Below, piece after piece: positions 812 to 7,616 of a stretch of DNA of 64,000 nucleotides; positions within the stretch are counted from its first letter, which is position 1, and every line of letters starts with the position of its first letter. The notes beneath the pieces were generated by a model. That model ran no database searches and was not told the origin of the DNA. It saw nothing but the letters and a program-made list of their open reading frames with translations. This DNA is from Roseibacillus persicicus. Its GTDB lineage: Bacteria > Verrucomicrobiota > Verrucomicrobiia > Verrucomicrobiales > Akkermansiaceae. Location: assembly GCF_014651675.1 (NCBI RefSeq), contig NZ_BMXI01000008.1:1-64000 (forward strand). Direction: 5' to 3'. A program made the position numbers and the translations under genes.

Positions 812-2560
812 CTATCCTTTCTTCAGCCCCTGCAAAGCCGCTCGAATCTTCTCCCCTTCTTTTGCAATGACCTCCAACAGTACTTCCGGCGAACGTTGGT
901 CTTGCTGCGAGACAGCATTGGGGTTAACCGCTTTCAAATCATAGACCGTAAGCTCAATAGCCTCGGCCCGCTTGGATTCCTCTCGCCCTGATTTGACCAA
1001 CTCTTTGTGTTCTTTCGCGAGAGACTCGATTTCTTCCCTCGGAGCCTTAGCCTTCTTGCGAACCTTGATTTTCTCATTGAGCTTTTCGGCTTCTTGACGA
1101 ATTTTTTCGGCCTTTTTGTAAAATGGCAGCGCATCAGCTGTCGCCTTTTTCCGCCTAGCTGCGAAGTCTATCGTCCAGCTCCGCTCGCTCTCGCCCCTCT
1201 TGGGCAAAAGCTCAAAGAACTCCTCAAAGCGCTCCAAAGTGAAGGGAGTGCGCTTCCCCACTTTGACGTCTGACAAGTCGTAGTAATAGATTTTCTCCGT
1301 CGCCTTTCCTTTCTGAAAGAAGAGCAAGTTCGTCTTCACCCCCGCACCGGCACCTGAGAAAGCCCCACCCGGAAGCGACAGGATGCAATAGAGATCACAC
1401 TCGTCTAACAGTTTACGTTTCGTTTTCACGAAAGACTCCTCGTTAGTCCGAAAAAGGAGCCCCTTGTCCAGCACAATTCCACAGCGTCCTTCGGGCGCGA
1501 GGCTATCGATAACATGCTGCAAAAAGAGAACCTGCGTCGCCTTGGTCTTGAAGGCAAAGTTCGCCTGAGCATCGGTGCCCTCCTTACCCCCAAAGGGCGG
1601 ATTGGAAAGAATGACGTCGAACTGAGGCGGCGCATCCGCGAAGAGGCCTTCGTATTGCGCATCACCTGTCAGGGTATTGCCATGCCAAAGCTGAGGAAAG
1701 TCAATGCCATGCAACACTAGGTTGGCGAGGGCGATGGGATAGACCAAGTTCTCCTTCTCACGACCAAAGAAGGTTCGGCTCTTCAGTTGCTCCATATCAC
1801 GAGCATGACTCACCTTCTCATGATTCGGCCCCGTCATGTGCTCGAAGGCCTGCGCCAAAAACCCTCCCGTTCCGCAGCCCGGATCATAGACCGTTTCCCC
1901 AATCTTGGGGTCGATCACCTTAACAGTCGCCCGAACAATCTCGCGGGGGGTAAAGAACTGCCCACCATCGCCCGCCTTATCGCCGAGGTCTGCCAGCAGT
2001 CCCTCGTAAACTTGCGAAAGCGTGAAGACGTGTTGGTCGTCCACTTGGTCAGGATTGATGTCGTCAATCTTATCCAAGACATCTAAAAAGTTACGGTCGG
2101 TATCCACGCGCACCCGTTCCACTCCGGAGAGAATCTCACTGATAATCTTCTGCCGCGAAGTCGCTCCCGACTGATTGCGCAAATCCTTCAAGTGAACGAT
2201 AAGCTCATTGTTGACCCACTGCTTGAACTCGTTGACCTCGCCCTCAGTCAGTTCCTTGCGCTTCCAACCCGCGTCGCCCGCAGTGATATCTTCATTCTCA
2301 TCCGGAGTCGCCGCCCAGTCCTGCCAACGGTAGGGACTCTGCAGGCTCGGGGTAAACTCCAAGCCTAGGACCGCCGCCCGCTTGGCATCCTGTTCTTCCA
2401 AGACATCAAGAATGCGCAGAAAAAGAATCCAGGTCAGCTCGGGGACATAGTTCATCGCTCCCGAACAATTCGAGCGCCGCATGATATCGCAGGCGCCGTA
2501 GATCTTATCGTCGAAGGAAGCGAGGGAGAGCGATTTTGAGGATTTTGAAGATTTTGACAT
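812..2560 (-). CDS. hsdM: Type I restriction-modification DNA methyltransferase subunit HsdM
   Basis: This 582-residue N6-adenine methyltransferase subunit pairs with HsdS to methylate the recognition sequence. An N-terminal helical domain (about 10-190) leads into the catalytic domain. The SAM-binding motif DPGCGTGG is at about 226-233 and the catalytic NPPF at 320-323. The last 120 residues are a lysine- and glutamate-rich coiled coil, usual where HsdM contacts HsdS. The frame could open 11 codons earlier, but MSKSSKSS fits the family start and avoids overlap with the upstream gene, which ends 11 bases before it. No strong Shine-Dalgarno sequence is visible. It is the last gene of the locus, separated from hsdS by an ATPase gene, whereas hsdM and hsdS are normally adjacent. 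Confidence 0.93.
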   Translation of the reverse strand: MSKSSKSSKSLSLASFDDKIYGACDIMRRSNCSGAMNYVPELTWILFLRILDVLEEQDAKRAAVLGLEFTPSLQSPYRWQDWAATPDENEDITAGDAGWKRKELTEGEVNEFKQWVNNELIVHLKDLRNQSGATSRQKIISEILSGVERVRVDTDRNFLDVLDKIDDINPDQVDDQHVFTLSQVYEGLLADLGDKAGDGGQFFTPREIVRATVKVIDPKIGETVYDPGCGTGGFLAQAFEHMTGPNHEKVSHARDMEQLKSRTFFGREKENLVYPIALANLVLHGIDFPQLWHGNTLTGDAQYEGLFADAPPQFDVILSNPPFGGKEGTDAQANFAFKTKATQVLFLQHVIDSLAPEGRCGIVLDKGLLFRTNEESFVKTKRKLLDECDLYCILSLPGGAFSGAGAGVKTNLLFFQKGKATEKIYYYDLSDVKVGKRTPFTLERFEEFFELLPKRGESERSWTIDFAARRKKATADALPFYKKAEKIRQEAEKLNEKIKVRKKAKAPREEIESLAKEHKELVKSGREESKRAEAIELTVYDLKAVNPNAVSQQDQRSPEVLLEVIAKEGEKIRAALQGLKKG

Positions 2561-2571
2561 TGAGAAACAGA

Positions 2572-3996
2572 TTAGAGGGAAAGCCAGTAGCAAGCCAAAG
2601 CGGCTGGAACGGCTAGAATTCGGGAGTTCTTATTAGACCACTCATCCAGAATTCGAAAATCCTCCCAGCGACGAGTAATAACATAACCATGCTCGATACC
2701 ATTTTTTTCAAGAAACTGGCACAGGCCTTTCAGCTTCCCAGGGGTCACGGCTGCATCCTGATACTTCACCTCGAAGGGCACGATGCGAGCTCCCACTTCG
2801 GCTACGAGATCGACTTCCAGCTCTTTCGTTTTTTCCCGCGAATAGCTGAAGGTAGGTTGGTCGGCATAATAGCGAGTGAAGACATGCTTGAAGAATGCGG
2901 TCTCGACTGCGGCCCCCAAGCGCTTGGGTTCCTTCAGCAAGCGACGACCGAGTAACAGAACCGACCCGGGCAAGGCCGCATCGGCCAGATAGACCTTAGT
3001 CTTTCCACGCAAGATATCCTTGCCATAGCCATAGGGCCGCAAGCGGTAAATCAAATGGGTGGACTCGAACAGATCGAGAAACTTGGAGACCGACTCCCGG
3101 GTAATGCCATCCAACTCGCGCGAGATCGCCGCGATATCTAGAATGCCTCCGTCGTGATAGCAGAGATAAAGAAAGATTTTCTCCAATTCAATAATCCGCC
3201 GCACCCCGTAGAGCGCAGTCATATCTCGCTTGAGAACCTTATCGACAATATCCTCCCGCAAGAGCCGCTGACAACGCGTCAGGTCATCGGTGAGCGCGGG
3301 TTCAGGGAAACCACCTCGCAAAAGATACTCATGGAAGTGCGGCACGAGGGCCTGTCCCTGTCGGGTTGCGCGTGCAAAGTCGCCCGCCGACCACTCAAAG
3401 CAATCGATGAGAGAACTCACTACCGGCACAGGATCAAGCTCGACCTGACGAAGGCTCAAATACTCGCCAAAAGAAAGCGTCGGCAGCGGCAGCGTCTCCC
3501 ATCGTCCTACCCCCGATTCAGTGGACCCATCACGCAGAGGGCTCGCTGAACCCGTCAAAGCGATGCGAAGGTGGCTCTTGAAGTCCACCTGATGCTTCAC
3601 CCAGACCTGCCAGTCATCAACATATTGAATTTCGTCGAGAAAGAGCCACTGCGTGTCCCCAGCCTTGGTTGGAAAAAGCTCTGCCCAGGCCGCCAAGGTC
3701 TTTTCCAGCCCTGCGAGCTTGAGGATGGGATGGTCGAAAGTGGCGTAAAGAATCTTGCTCGGCTCCACCTGTTTCTCGCTCACCAGCTGACGAATCAGCT
3801 GCCGAAAGAGAGTCGTCTTCCCGGTCTGGCGCGCTCCGCTGAGCAAGAGAGCCCGCTTGGACGAGCTCATCGCCCAAGCCCGCAGCCGCTTCATCGCGGT
3901 CCGCTCCCAGTCGGGTAAGTCGCCACTGCTCTGCTCTGACCACCAAGGATTGAACTCTTGGAGAACAGCAAAAAGCTCTGATTTAGGAATATCCAC
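2572..3996 (-). CDS. AAA+ ATPase with DUF4143 domain, inside the type I R-M locus
   Basis: This 474-residue protein has the COG1373 layout: an FNPWW element near residue 15, Walker A GARQTGKT at 54-61, Walker B WLFLDE at 117-122, an SGS-type sensor region near 150, a winged-helix region, and a C-terminal DUF4143 domain with nuclease-like elements (EVDLVAE, FEVKYQ). The E-x-D and E-V-K spacing resembles a PD-(D/E)XK fold, but this is inference. The start is GTG; no Shine-Dalgarno site is seen because a palindrome directly abuts the codon. The gene lies between hsdS and hsdM in the same direction, with a 70-base gap from hsdS holding two palindromes, so it probably has its own promoter. Its cellular role is not established; a link to the R-M system rests on position only. 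Confidence 0.85.
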   Translation of the reverse strand: MDIPKSELFAVLQEFNPWWSEQSSGDLPDWERTAMKRLRAWAMSSSKRALLLSGARQTGKTTLFRQLIRQLVSEKQVEPSKILYATFDHPILKLAGLEKTLAAWAELFPTKAGDTQWLFLDEIQYVDDWQVWVKHQVDFKSHLRIALTGSASPLRDGSTESGVGRWETLPLPTLSFGEYLSLRQVELDPVPVVSSLIDCFEWSAGDFARATRQGQALVPHFHEYLLRGGFPEPALTDDLTRCQRLLREDIVDKVLKRDMTALYGVRRIIELEKIFLYLCYHDGGILDIAAISRELDGITRESVSKFLDLFESTHLIYRLRPYGYGKDILRGKTKVYLADAALPGSVLLLGRRLLKEPKRLGAAVETAFFKHVFTRYYADQPTFSYSREKTKELEVDLVAEVGARIVPFEVKYQDAAVTPGKLKGLCQFLEKNGIEHGYVITRRWEDFRILDEWSNKNSRILAVPAALACYWLSL

Positions 3997-4050
3997 GCTT
4001 AATTTCCGAAATTAAGCCTTTTACACTAGGCTTAATCAACTGAATTAAGT
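3997..4050. promoter_or_regulatory. Two matching palindromes upstream of the DUF4143 ATPase
   Basis: Copy A (3997-4017) is GCTTAAT, seven bases, ATTAAGC; its spacer extends the symmetry to a ten-base inverted repeat around base 4007. Copy B (4030-4050) is GCTTAAT, seven bases, ATTAAGT. The centres are 33 bases apart, about three helical turns, so both would face the same side of the DNA. Copy A touches the GTG start codon of the ATPase. The arrangement fits a pair of operator sites for a dimeric repressor, though a role as an RNA structure at the start codon is also possible. Confidence 0.55.
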
Positions 4051-4066
4051 GTATTTCTTTCGATTT

Positions 4067-5251
4067 TTACCCAAAAACGCCCCGGAGGACCGCCGCAGGG
4101 AGGGCTTGGATGGCTTTGAGCTGGGTTTGGGCTGCTTGCAGGGTTTCCCGCTGAGCAGCTAGCTGGTCGTCGAGCTGAGTGACAACGGCTTGTTGGGTAG
4201 CGAGGTCGGGAAGAGCGAGGTGCATGTCCTTCGCAGCCGGCACATAGATTGTTTGATGAATCGCGCCCGATGCTTGGGACTCCAAATAAGATTTCGAGCA
4301 TCGAAAGGCATGAAGCAAAAAATTGGGCAATAGAGAGTCACCGCAAATCCAGTTAAAAAAATGCTGACTGGTTGCCATGTCTCGCCCAAGCAAAGTGGCA
4401 AAGCCAACCACCACATCGCGCGAAAGAACAACCGTATTTTTTGGAAGAATTCGCGCAGAGGAATTTGCAATGCCTAGCTCGTTCGGATGGTCACGAGTAT
4501 CAAGAGCGACCAACCCGTCTAACTTACGAATATCAGGTAGAGCAATCCATGGAATATCACCACCCCACCACTCGGGGTGACGGCGGCTGGGGGTGTGACC
4601 AGATTCGAGCCGGGCGACATCGAGAAGTCGCTGCCATCGCCAACCTTCCGGAAGCGAATCACTCGGATAACCAATGCGAACAGGTGTAGTATCAGGAAAG
4701 GCGGCCCCAAGAAGAGAGCGCTCCAGTGCTTTAGCTGCTTCGACTTGTCGCTCAGCCGCAGCTCGGGCGATTTCAATAGAGGCAAGCTGTTCATCGAGTT
4801 CCGCGGCGATGCGTTTTTGCTCGGCGAGAGGTGGGAGGGGGATTTGAAAATTTCTAAGTTTTTCTCCTGACAAATTCGGAAAGGTAGATCCTGCACCATT
4901 GTTTAAAAAGTCTCGTGCTAAATACTGAGTCGTATGAATCAGAAAGCGCTGGTCTGATATATCAACACGGGCTCGGATAGCTGCCAAACCGCGACCTATA
5001 CAGTAAACAGAGTCAGCAATATTTTGCTTCCCAAGAGTATTCCCCCGCACGCAAAGGAGAATATCTCCACTTTCACAAAGCTTTGTTGGCAAAGTTGTCC
5101 ACTGTGTTGCAACAGGAGAGGTTTGTGTAAACTCCGTGGGACCATTTATCAACGGGGTCCCAACTTCCAAATCGTTGTAACTCGATCCTGGTGGACTATG
5201 ACCCATCTCAATAATCGCTATACTATCTAAAGACACACGGGGATACTTCAT
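4067..5251 (-). CDS. hsdS: Type I restriction-modification specificity subunit HsdS
   Basis: This 394-residue subunit determines the bipartite DNA recognition sequence. It has two target-recognition domains (about 1-150 and 205-345), each followed by a conserved helical region: LPPLAEQKRIAAELDEQ plus a long helix in the middle, and LPDLATQQAVVTQLDDQ plus a helix at the end. The repeat is clear and the length is usual for the family. The ATG overlaps the hsdR stop as ATGA, so the two are translationally coupled. The first recognition domain is noticeably more AT-rich than the conserved helices, typical of recognition domains exchanged by recombination. The gene ends 70 bases before the ATPase. 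Confidence 0.93.
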   Translation of the reverse strand: MKYPRVSLDSIAIIEMGHSPPGSSYNDLEVGTPLINGPTEFTQTSPVATQWTTLPTKLCESGDILLCVRGNTLGKQNIADSVYCIGRGLAAIRARVDISDQRFLIHTTQYLARDFLNNGAGSTFPNLSGEKLRNFQIPLPPLAEQKRIAAELDEQLASIEIARAAAERQVEAAKALERSLLGAAFPDTTPVRIGYPSDSLPEGWRWQRLLDVARLESGHTPSRRHPEWWGGDIPWIALPDIRKLDGLVALDTRDHPNELGIANSSARILPKNTVVLSRDVVVGFATLLGRDMATSQHFFNWICGDSLLPNFLLHAFRCSKSYLESQASGAIHQTIYVPAAKDMHLALPDLATQQAVVTQLDDQLAAQRETLQAAQTQLKAIQALPAAVLRGVFG

Positions 5252-7616
5252 GCTGCAAACAACCTCCGTTTCGCTTCCGCAACCAGCTCTCCGGGATGTT
5301 CTCCCAGCGCGTTAATTCCACCGGCTTGTTTGATGGCGGGGACGTCAAAAATATCTTTCAGCTCCAGACCCTCGGTGCCATTGGCCACGAATTGATGCAC
5401 GATGGCGAGGAGGACTGCTTCCGTGTTTTGACCCAAAGCCGCGAGCCACTCGGCCTCGCGCGCCGCGAAGAGTTCGGCGCGATGTTGACGGGTGAGAGCC
5501 GGGCTTTGGTAGGCGAGGTGCGCCAGCACGTCAAAGAGATCGAAGTCGTCCATCTTTTCCACAATCCGAATCCGCTCGGGGGCCGAGCCTGCTTCCGGCA
5601 ACTGCTCGATAAGTTCGCTGCGGCGCGTGGGTTCGATCCATTGCGCCAGAAAGGAGGCTAAATCAGGAGCTTCCGCCAAGAGCGCTGCCGCCAAGCGGGC
5701 CTTGTAATCCGCCAGCGAGACCGGCATGGCCTGCCCATCCACCTCGGTCAAGATGGAGTGCCCCCCATCGCGAATCTCCACCGAGATGCCGCGCGCTTCC
5801 ACATAGGTTGTGCCACCACCGCCGCCGCTCTCGCCCGTTTCCCCGGAAGGCGGCGGAGAGATGAACCCTTGTCCAAAAAGCCGGGTGGCATTGGTGTAAT
5901 CCCAGACATGGAACATGAGCTTGCCCGAGGCCCGGTCAATCCGTGTCCCCCGCCCCACCATCTGATAGAAGGCGATGGGCGAACGGAGATAGCGCGCAAA
6001 ACAACATTGCGAATGGCCGGGACATCGACCCCGGTAGTAATGAGGTCCACCGTAGTTGCAATAAAGTGATGCGTGCCCGCGCCCTTGAAGTCGGGGAGCT
6101 GGTCATTGCCGCCAGACGCACTGGTGCACTTGAAGGCATAGGGCTCGCGTCGAGCTTGTCCCGTCGTTTTGCACCAGTCCGCGTAGCAATTGTTGAGAGC
6201 CCGCGCGATGGCTCCCGCGTGAGCATCAGAGGTGCAGAAAATAACCGATTTTTGCAGCGGTCCCCCACTGGCGAGCAAGCCTCGAAAGAAATCCTCCGCC
6301 AACTCCTGAACGCGCTCGGGGAGAAGAAGAAACTTCTCAAAGGATTGGGCCCGATAGTCACGCGGCAAGTCAGCGTCATTGATGACGCCGCCTGTGCGAG
6401 CATCGGTGAGAACCTTTCCGCGCAGCTGGCTCCGCCGCAGGCCGGTTTGCTCCTCGGGATCCGGCATGTGCTCCAGGAAGATATCGCGCTTGCGAATATC
6501 GCAGGCCGCTAGGTAGCCATCCTCCATCGCTTGCGAGAGGGAGTATTCATAGACCGGCTCACCGAAGTGCTTGATGTTATCGGCGGCGATTTTCTTCTCC
6601 TGCTCGTCATCGACGTCCTTGGTCTTCTTAGCAAGTTTGATTTCGCGCGGAGTGGCGGTGAGCCCGATTTGGAAGGCGTCGGGATTCCTGTCTAACACCT
6701 CCGACCATTTCCCCCAAGCCGAGCGATGGCACTCGTCGATAATGATGTGAGAAAAGTAGTTTTTGGGATAGTGGGTGGTTAGGAAAGAAGAGTCGTCATC
6801 ATCGTGATCAACCCCAAGAGTTTGATAGGTGGCGATTAAGATGCGGGCATTCTTCTCAGGTCGTCCACTCTTCACCTCCGCAGCATTGCTTCCAAAAACA
6901 GAACGAATCGTTCCTGCCCCTTGTTCGCGCAATTCCTTGCGGTCACAAATGAAGAGGGCTTTCCGCAACACCCCGGCGTCTGCCAAGCGGCGTAAAAGGT
7001 GGGCCGCAAGGAAGGTTTTTCCTGATCCAGTGGCTAACGAAAGAAGAGCCCGATTCGATTCATTGGGCTTTGCCATCCGCTCGAAGACTGCCCGAATCGC
7101 TGCGTCCTGATAGTAACGTCGCTGACTCTCTCCGCTGCCATGATAAGGGGTCAGAAGAGGCCGCGCCGCCGGGTCGGTGAGCTGGAAACCCATTCCAGCC
7201 TCGTAACGTTGCCAAAGCTCCCCCGGAGTCGGGAATCCGGAAAGAGGCCGCGGCTCGGTTTCTTTGCCGGTAAAATGATCGAACTCCACGAAGAGATGAC
7301 CATTGGTCGAAAAGACAAAGGGCACGTGAAGAACCTTCGAGCGAGAATAGCCTTTCGACTGCTCCAACCCATGAGCAGGCAACTTGGCTTCAGCCTTAGC
7401 TTCCACGATAGCCACCGCGACAGGTTGCTCATCCTTCGCCCCAGGCAGACGCAGCGTGTAATCGGTGCGACCTTGGCGTGACTGCACCGGCTTCCCCTCG
7501 ATAATAGCGATGCGACCCGCTGACTCCTCACGCCGAAGATGAGCCTCCGTCCAACCTCGCTCTTTGAGAGCAGGGTCGATGAGTTTGGCTCGGGTATCGG
7601 CTTCGTTGAGAGACAC
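5248..7616 (-). pseudogene. hsdR: Type I restriction endonuclease subunit HsdR, interrupted by one frameshift
   Basis: Restriction and DNA-translocation subunit. The N-terminal nuclease domain has D52 and an E72-A-K74 element; Walker A ATGSGKT lies at 195-201 and DECH at 294-297, followed by helicase motifs (TATPRE, TTGVDVP). After the codons for RNVV the frame is lost: at 5997-6000 the plus strand has four A residues where five would restore VVFARYLRSPIAFYQMVGRGTRID, the expected helicase motif VI region. The remaining 237 codons continue in the next frame to the stop at 5248. Joined, the product would be about 789 residues, normal for this EcoEI-like group. A single missing base in a homopolymer could be a sequencing error, a real inactivation or a phase-variable site. 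Confidence 0.88.

What the first reader, a model, noticed from the sequence alone, without database searches (positions are those of the whole stretch)
3997..4050. Two matching palindromes directly before an AAA/DUF4143 ATPase embedded in an R-M locus
GCTTAAT-N7-ATTAAG(C/T) occurs twice, 33 bases centre to centre, and copy A touches the GTG start codon of the ATPase. In-phase dimer sites imply a dedicated regulator for this gene, although no regulator gene lies next to it. It could be the ATPase itself, an HTH protein elsewhere, or an RNA structure that hides the start codon. This suggests that the ATPase is a separately controlled module in the restriction locus.
Basis: partly seen in the sequence, partly recalled or inferred. 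Interest (0 to 1): 0.62.

Follow-up and report, generated by a model that had tools for sequence, protein, structure and literature searches.

The report
Defence ATPase with its own operator
A widespread, unexplained bacterial defence-candidate enzyme (an ATPase joined to a nuclease-like domain) has a conserved four-part DNA binding site over its own promoter, and sequence evidence suggests that the enzyme itself binds there and so controls its own production.

Summary
The two palindromes are real, abut the ATPase GTG and are unique in the 5.28 Mb genome. They are four half-sites (CTTAAT / ATTAAG) around a -10-like box. The same ungapped 54-bp array lies upstream of homologous genes in many phyla: 88 of 88 scored rows exceed the 99th percentile of 216 neighbour-gene upstream regions, with relatives above 70% identity left out. 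It is not an R-M feature: the commonest neighbour family occurs in 8 of 79 loci. The likely binder is the ATPase itself. DUF4143 models as a winged helix plus a PD-(D/E)XK-like fold. Residue 300, first of the recognition helix, best predicts the half-site bases of 345 protein columns. In rows without an extra glycine, at half-site 3, K goes with C in 29 of 29 and R with A in 36 of 41, beyond a tree-based null. This simple code fails in the window's own subclade. Distant DUF4143 ATPases (PADLOC PDC-S01) often have other dyads at their starts: 30 of 68 versus 7 of 80 controls. Best reading: an autoregulated ATPase-nuclease whose operator here probably also controls hsdM, 11 nt downstream. Binding, repression and defence are untested.

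The parts
3998..4051 (-). 54-bp operator/promoter array: site1 > < site2 [-10-like] site3 > < site4
   Evidence: EM model of 86 upstream regions; leave-out test 88 of 88 rows
4044..4049 (-). half-site 1 (CTTAAT on the gene strand), probably overlaps the -35 (inferred from spacing)
4031..4036 (-). half-site 2 (ATTAAG on the gene strand)
4020..4025 (-). inferred -10 box (TGTAAA here; TATACT in the family consensus)
   Evidence: column alignment; not found by the strict consensus scan
4011..4016 (-). half-site 3 (CTTAAT on the gene strand)
3998..4003 (-). half-site 4 (ATTAAG on the gene strand), 1 bp from the GTG
4011..4036 (.). inner dyad ATTAAGCC-N10-GGCTTAAT formed by half-sites 2 and 3
   Evidence: only match in the genome with up to 1 mismatch
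2572..3996 (-). ATPase gene: AAA_14 + DUF4143, 474 aa, GTG start
   Evidence: PADLOC PDC-S01 E 5.5e-46
3034..3195 (-). winged-helix part, residues 268-321
   Evidence: secondary structure of the model, mean pLDDT 91.9
3061..3099 (-). recognition helix, residues 300-312; residue 300 covaries with the half-site base
2575..3021 (-). PD-(D/E)XK-like C-terminal domain, residues 326-474; E365, D396, E409 invariant, K411 in at least 90% of rows
812..2560 (-). hsdM, probable ATG at 2560 (the open frame begins at 2593), 11 nt after the ATPase stop; probably in the same transcript
   Evidence: co-transcription inferred
4067..5251 (-). hsdS, upstream neighbour
5248..7616 (-). hsdR in two overlapping frames (frameshift)

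Best explanation
The palindromes are the operator of an autoregulated ATPase-nuclease. The ATPase binds the four half-sites with its own winged helix (recognition helix 300-312), as dimers or as a larger ATP-dependent oligomer. The sites probably overlap the -35, flank the -10 and end at the start codon, so binding would block the promoter and keep the ATPase (and here hsdM, 11 nt downstream) at a low level. When the protein is drawn away, for example by ATP turnover or by engaging foreign DNA, the promoter would open. Shown here: the array, its conservation with this gene, its single place in the genome, and the residue-base covariation among relatives. Inferred: direct binding, repression rather than activation, oligomeric state, trigger, and co-regulation of hsdM.
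For: (1) One ungapped 54-bp model fits 86 upstream regions. With every row above 70% protein identity left out, 88 of 88 scored rows exceed the 99th percentile of 216 neighbour-gene upstream regions (medians 26.4 and -22.8; the lowest row, L028, only just), and 87 of 88 exceed the 99th percentile of single-base shuffles. (2) The array is fixed to the gene start: it ends 1 bp away in 12 and 11-13 bp away in 61 of 90 rows. (3) No other gene is shared: the commonest neighbour family is in 8 of 79 loci. (4) The operator is private in the window genome. (5) For bases 2 and 3 of half-sites 2 and 3 together, residue 300 ranks first of 345 columns in 84 rows (z 3.2, next 2.9) and first of 339 in the 68 rows without G297 (z 6.2, next 2.4). 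Taken singly in 84 rows it ranks first for base 2 at site 1 (z 5.9, next 2.8) and, by narrow margins, at sites 2 and 3 (z 3.4 and 4.0, next 3.3 and 4.0). (6) Against a two-state model simulated on a tree built without the winged-helix columns, 0 of 2000 simulations reach the observed link at sites 1, 2 and 3 in 70 rows without G297 (site 3: K-C 29 of 29; R-A 36, R-C 3, other 2 of 41); in all 86 rows p is 0.001, 0.009 and 0.0005. K and R change places at least 8 times on the tree. (7) The model is confident and shows the winged-helix elements. (8) Distant members often have other dyads at their starts.
Against: No binding or expression data. In the 16 rows with G297, which include the window, residue 300 is R in 14 and K in 2 while base 2 of site 3 is C in all 16 (differences of the counts), and residue 300 is not among the 12 best columns there; the simple code does not carry over. 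For base 3 alone residue 300 is not among the top three columns at any site. Site 4 shows no significant link (p 0.13 in all rows, 0.07 without G297). Independent tree pairs were too few: 3 on well-supported branches; at site 3 usually 2 in the expected direction, none against, 1 tied (the output for sites 1 and 2 was cut from view). The window -10 is weak and no consensus promoter was found in the array. 38 of 68 distant members do not reach dyad score 10 (wrongly chosen starts may be one cause). Activation instead of repression would look the same.
Confidence: 0.77

Rival explanations
1. A separate DNA-binding regulator, encoded elsewhere, controls the ATPase.
For: Palindromic operators are usually read by small HTH repressors (general knowledge); RptR does this for a Type I R-M defence island (abstract of PMC12255303).
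Against: No common neighbour in 79 loci. The array keeps its anatomy across phyla while its half-sites drift with residue 300 of the ATPase. The site is unique in the genome. In one genome six of 11 sampled paralogues have strong dyads of about four sequence types, by eye, which would need several unlinked regulators.
Confidence: 0.08
2. The array is mainly a docking or holding site that keeps the ATPase-nuclease inactive or loads it on DNA; effects on transcription are secondary.
For: There are four sites; structural neighbours of the ATPase part include NLR and CED-4 proteins and Orc1/Cdc6, some of them bound to DNA. For M.SsoII, DNA with the regulatory site inhibits methylation (start of the abstract of PMC6100179).
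Against: The array lies on the inferred promoter and is fixed to the start codon, which fits transcription control best.
Confidence: 0.09
3. The palindromes act in RNA: a hairpin hides the GTG start codon.
For: The window strand folds better than its shuffles (z -3.2, 2 of 200 as good).
Against: The inner dyad spans the inferred -10, so a transcript starting there could not hold both arms (inferred). In most rows the array ends 11-13 bp before the start (61 of 90). Half-site bases track a residue of a DNA-binding fold.
Confidence: 0.04
4. Chance, or a terminator of hsdS.
For: The array lies just after hsdS.
Against: Chance is excluded. In 25 of 75 loci the nearest upstream open frame of 100 codons or more runs the other way, yet the array is kept; it is A+T-rich and no terminator-like site was found in it.
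Confidence: 0.02

Closest known systems
PDC-S01 (PADLOC candidate defence gene: ATPase joined to a PD-(D/E)XK member)
   Same: The ATPase matches 7 PDC-S01 models (best E 5.5e-46) and fits the architecture told in a passage of PMC12988326.
   Different: No operator or regulation is told in what I saw: passages of PMC12988326, PMC13356809, PMC4406477 and PMC3861447 and search listings for DUF4143 (1 paper), PDC-S01 (3), COG1373 (7), PDC-S with promoter terms (2, unrelated). I did not open the other listed papers.
Self-regulating DNA methyltransferases such as M.SsoII
   Same: A restriction-modification enzyme that also regulates transcription in its own system (abstract starts of PMC3978073 and PMC6100179).
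   Different: Here the enzyme is an ATPase with a nuclease-like domain that would read DNA through a winged helix inside DUF4143; in M.SsoII an N-terminal region of residues 1-71 regulates.
RptR, a repressor of Type I R-M defence islands
   Same: Represses a defence-island promoter by binding repeats in it (abstract of PMC12255303).
   Different: RptR is a small separate protein that reads TAGCTA; here no separate regulator gene lies alongside and TAGCTA is absent from the array.
Archaeal ATPases SSO1545 (2fna) and PABY2304 (2qen)
   Same: Top structural neighbours of the ATPase and winged-helix part (Z 15.7 and 16.1; 270 and 271 residues; rmsd 4.3 and 4.7).
   Different: The aligned part ends near residue 348; the nuclease-like C-terminal domain lies outside it. 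That these belong to the STAND class is recalled, not tested.

Membership tests
DUF4143 / PDC-S01 ATPases | AAA_14 ATPase domain with Walker motifs | tested here: met
   PF13173 E 1.9e-27; G59, K60, T62, D121, E122 invariant in 64 rows; motif names recalled
DUF4143 / PDC-S01 ATPases | DUF4143 domain and PADLOC model match | tested here: met
   PF13635 E 6.9e-26; PDC-S01 E 5.5e-46
DUF4143 / PDC-S01 ATPases | Anti-phage activity | not testable with these tools
   needs infection assays; [quoted passage not shown]
PD-(D/E)XK nuclease superfamily | Restriction-endonuclease-like fold of the C-terminal domain | tested here: met
   EcoT38I Z 8.6 (120 residues, rmsd 3.5), Can2 7.6, FokI 7.2. Scores are modest: no Foldseek match under E 0.001, 3 chains at Z 8 or more, and RNA polymerase subunit E chains reach 7.3
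PD-(D/E)XK nuclease superfamily | Catalytic residues kept (E...D...ExK, motif recalled) | tested here: met
   E365, D396, E409 invariant, K411 in at least 90% of 64 rows
PD-(D/E)XK nuclease superfamily | Cleaves nucleic acid | not testable with these tools
   needs an enzyme assay
Autoregulated gene (protein binds its own operator) | Conserved operator tied to the gene across genomes | tested here: met
   88 of 88 scored rows (two doubtful rows left out before)
Autoregulated gene (protein binds its own operator) | A DNA-reading residue of the protein covaries with the operator | tested here: met
   met at sites 1-3 among rows without G297; not seen inside the 16-row subclade that holds the window nor at site 4
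Autoregulated gene (protein binds its own operator) | Direct binding and change of transcription | not testable with these tools
   needs binding and reporter assays
RptR or C-protein control of R-M loci | Separate small HTH regulator gene next to the operator | tested here: not met
   the neighbours are hsdS and hsdM
RptR | TAGCTA operator | tested here: not met
   absent from 3961-4080 by reading
STAND NTPases | STAND-type ATPase and winged-helix fold with its sequence signatures | tested here: inconclusive
   fold matches to 2qen, 2fna, NLR and CED-4 chains; signatures not tested

The most novel reading that the evidence does not exclude
Autoregulation through a start-proximal palindromic operator is the usual state of the whole DUF4143/PDC-S01 family, with operator types that follow the recognition helix. 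A genome with a dozen paralogues would then hold several largely insulated repressor-nucleases, and the same winged-helix reading may hold each nuclease in check on its own promoter until foreign DNA pulls it away.
Probability: 0.4. Interest if true: 0.78.

Novelty: new variant of a known kind. Interest (0 to 1): 0.63.

Why it matters
PDC-S01 is told to be the fourth most common defence across prokaryotes, with experimental validation pending for most such candidates (passages of PMC12988326). A conserved operator with a named candidate specificity residue would give it a first testable biochemical activity: sequence-specific DNA binding by DUF4143. It also gives a marker for true start codons and a natural reporter for finding what triggers these proteins.

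Tried and rejected
R-M control as the main story was rejected: R-M families are few among immediate neighbours. Downstream, of 73: ResIII 4, N6_Mtase 3, HSDR_N 2, N6_N4_Mtase 2, overlapping. Upstream, of 75: Methylase_S 2, DNA_methylase 1. These lists show only the first 25 of 92 and 68 families, so rarer R-M families may be missed. PADLOC tallies downstream: at most 4 of 73 for any one model.

Mobile origin: no relative in viral contigs (two peptide patterns) or phages (E 1e-20); one distant hit, 28% identity, in plasmids at E 1e-40. A regulon in the own genome: no sign. RNA hairpin and terminator: see rivals. Independent tree pairs were underpowered, so a simulation null was used. Literature searches with nothing on the point.

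Rows dropped. The genome-contig scan kept the best 80 of 241 relatives. Protein alignment A1 took 63 of those 80 loci plus the window: L031 has an in-frame stop, L079 and L088 had no start in range, and L046, L049, L054, L056, L059, L064, L065, L070, L076, L087, L090, L093, L099, L100 were not given. EM took 86 of 91 rows: L022, L023, L025 left out as distant, L049 and L090 too short upstream. L098 and L101, doubtful placements, were left out of covariation, tree and leave-out tests. L115, L116, L119, L120 were added; L114 was too short. Of 39 loci in set B (L022-L025, L121-L155) 25 gave a usable start, of 30 in set C (L156-L185) 29. One search used 68 of 83 loci (L121-L205 less two repeats), and so overlaps sets B and C.

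Mended on checking: the paralogue count is 11 of 20, not 12; paralogue dyads are not all different; a second ATPase behind L031 was a misreading. The novel-case odds went from 0.45 to 0.40 for this.

Full report
Observation. Both palindromes are present at the stated places and copy A abuts the GTG of the ATPase. Chance gives 0.13 such matches in the window. In the whole genome the exact pattern occurs only here. The two palindromes also form an inner dyad at 4011-4036, the only match in 5.28 Mb with up to one mismatch, while the reversed control pattern finds six.

The gene. The ATPase (2572-3996, minus strand) has AAA_14 and DUF4143 and matches PADLOC PDC-S01. It is the only DUF4143 match in its genome at E 0.001 and patchy among relatives: 20 of 384 class genomes, its own included, match at E 1e-40, and two same-genus genomes do not. 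A model from 64 rows has mean pLDDT 91.9 and winged-helix elements at 268-321 with a recognition helix at 300-312. The structural neighbours of the ATPase and winged-helix part include archaeal ATPases, NLR and CED-4 proteins and Orc1/Cdc6. The C-terminal domain modelled alone (pLDDT 80.4) resembles restriction endonucleases, EcoT38I first, with modest scores (Z 8.6). Its E...D...ExK residues are kept.

Conservation of the element. A genome-contig scan found 241 relatives, of which the best 80 loci, from many phyla by record title, were kept. Their upstream regions often show TTAAG/CTTAA or TTAGT/ACTAA half-sites around a TATACTT-like box. EM on 86 regions gave one ungapped 54-bp model with four half-sites: two palindromes 33 bp apart around a TATACT box. 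That is the window's anatomy. With relatives above 70% identity left out, 88 of 88 rows score above the 99th percentile of 216 neighbour-gene upstream regions, the lowest (L028) only just, and 87 of 88 above that of single-base shuffles; the window scores 16.4. The array ends 1 bp before the start in 12 rows, the window among them, and 11-13 bp before it in 61 of 90, about one helical turn further out.

Which protein binds it. Neighbours are diverse: the most shared family of neighbouring open frames is in 8 of 79 loci, and Pfam tallies of immediate neighbours show few recurrent families. The ATPase is the only constant gene. If it binds the array, DNA-reading residues should covary with half-site bases. 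For bases 2 and 3 of sites 2 and 3 together, residue 300 (K or R, first residue of the recognition helix) ranks first of 345 tested columns in 84 rows (z 3.2, next 2.9) and first of 339 in 68 rows without G297 (z 6.2, next 2.4). Singly it ranks first for base 2 at sites 1, 2 and 3, with a clear margin only at site 1. All columns share one phylogeny, so the other columns serve as a control. A two-state model simulated on a tree without the winged-helix columns gives 0 of 2000 replicates as strong at sites 1-3 in 70 rows without G297; in all 86 rows p is 0.001, 0.009 and 0.0005; site 4 is not significant (0.07 and 0.13). K300 goes with C (CTTAA), R300 with A (ACTAA). A physical reading, inferred, is that the side chain follows a guanine that lies one base pair further in for R.

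Against this, the 16 rows with G297, including the window, have C at site 3 throughout although 14 carry R300, so the rule is not universal; independent tree pairs were too few to test it.

Wider family. Start-proximal dyads were scored as the best ungapped local inverted repeat from 70 nt upstream to 6 nt past the start. Close homologues average 8.4, intermediate ones (28-37% identity) 9.4, generic DUF4143 hits 9.5, neighbour-gene controls 6.3 (n 86, 25, 29, 250; one-sided p 2e-14, 1e-7, 7e-10). Pooling the distant loci with further paralogues, 30 of 68 reach score 10 against 7 of 80 other upstream regions in the same loci (p 6e-9). Twenty paralogue regions from three genomes, two of them repeats of earlier loci, give 11 of 20 at 10 or more (6 of 11, 3 of 7, 2 of 2), with perfect arms of up to 17 bp. 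By eye these dyads are of several sequence types, but some paralogues share a type (L186 with L190, L189 with L191). So the window's element looks like one case of a frequent family habit.

Mechanism. The array flanks the inferred -10, probably overlaps the -35 and ends at the start codon, the classic place for a repressor (general knowledge of promoter occlusion). Autorepression is the best reading; activation or a holding role are rivals. In this window hsdM probably begins 11 nt after the ATPase stop, so the same promoter probably drives it. This is local: in the closest homologue listed (L026, 79%) the next downstream open frame is on the other strand.

Known or new. In the library searched, DUF4143 occurs in 1 paper, PDC-S01 in 3 and COG1373 in 7; the passages and listings I saw tell of no operator. 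Most subscription papers and all bioRxiv preprints are missing from it. Self-regulating enzymes are a known kind (M.SsoII), as are separate repressors of defence islands (RptR). An ATPase-nuclease that reads its own operator through DUF4143 is, as far as I could search, a new variant.

Noticed in passing
5248-7616 (minus), break near 5995-6020: hsdR is split by a frameshift: the ResIII part and the EcoEI_R_C part lie in two overlapping frames. It may be an assembly error or a real loss of restriction.
   Followed up: partly
L054, L056, L062, L089: In L054, L056 and L062 the best array ends 38-48 bp before the chosen start instead of 0-19, and L062 and L089 show more than one array-like stretch by eye, as if arrays can be duplicated.
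   Followed up: no
L163 and other generic DUF4143 loci: In L163 a -35-like TTGCAA and a -10-like TAATTT lie inside the dyad arms, 17 bp apart, and the ATG follows the -10 by a few bases, so the transcript may be leaderless. Seen by eye, not counted.
   Followed up: no
L156-L205: Generic DUF4143 dyads fall by eye into recurring types (TTGCAAAT-like, ACCTTGAAAAT-like, TGAGTTTTCTAAA-like), possible operator classes to match with recognition-helix classes.
   Followed up: no
L031 (gene from 6001): A homologue with an in-frame stop at residue 102 that still keeps the array.
   Followed up: no
L073:4099-5301: The next gene downstream of the L073 ATPase looks like a second, different ATPase of the same kind; one of the 73 downstream neighbours matches DUF4143.
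   Followed up: no
L052, L059, L063, L064, L065, L070, L076: A proteobacterial subgroup with KRPTAQ helices has unusual half-sites (TAACAAA, GCATTGA in most) and a TGTAGT-like -10, a possible further specificity class.
   Followed up: no
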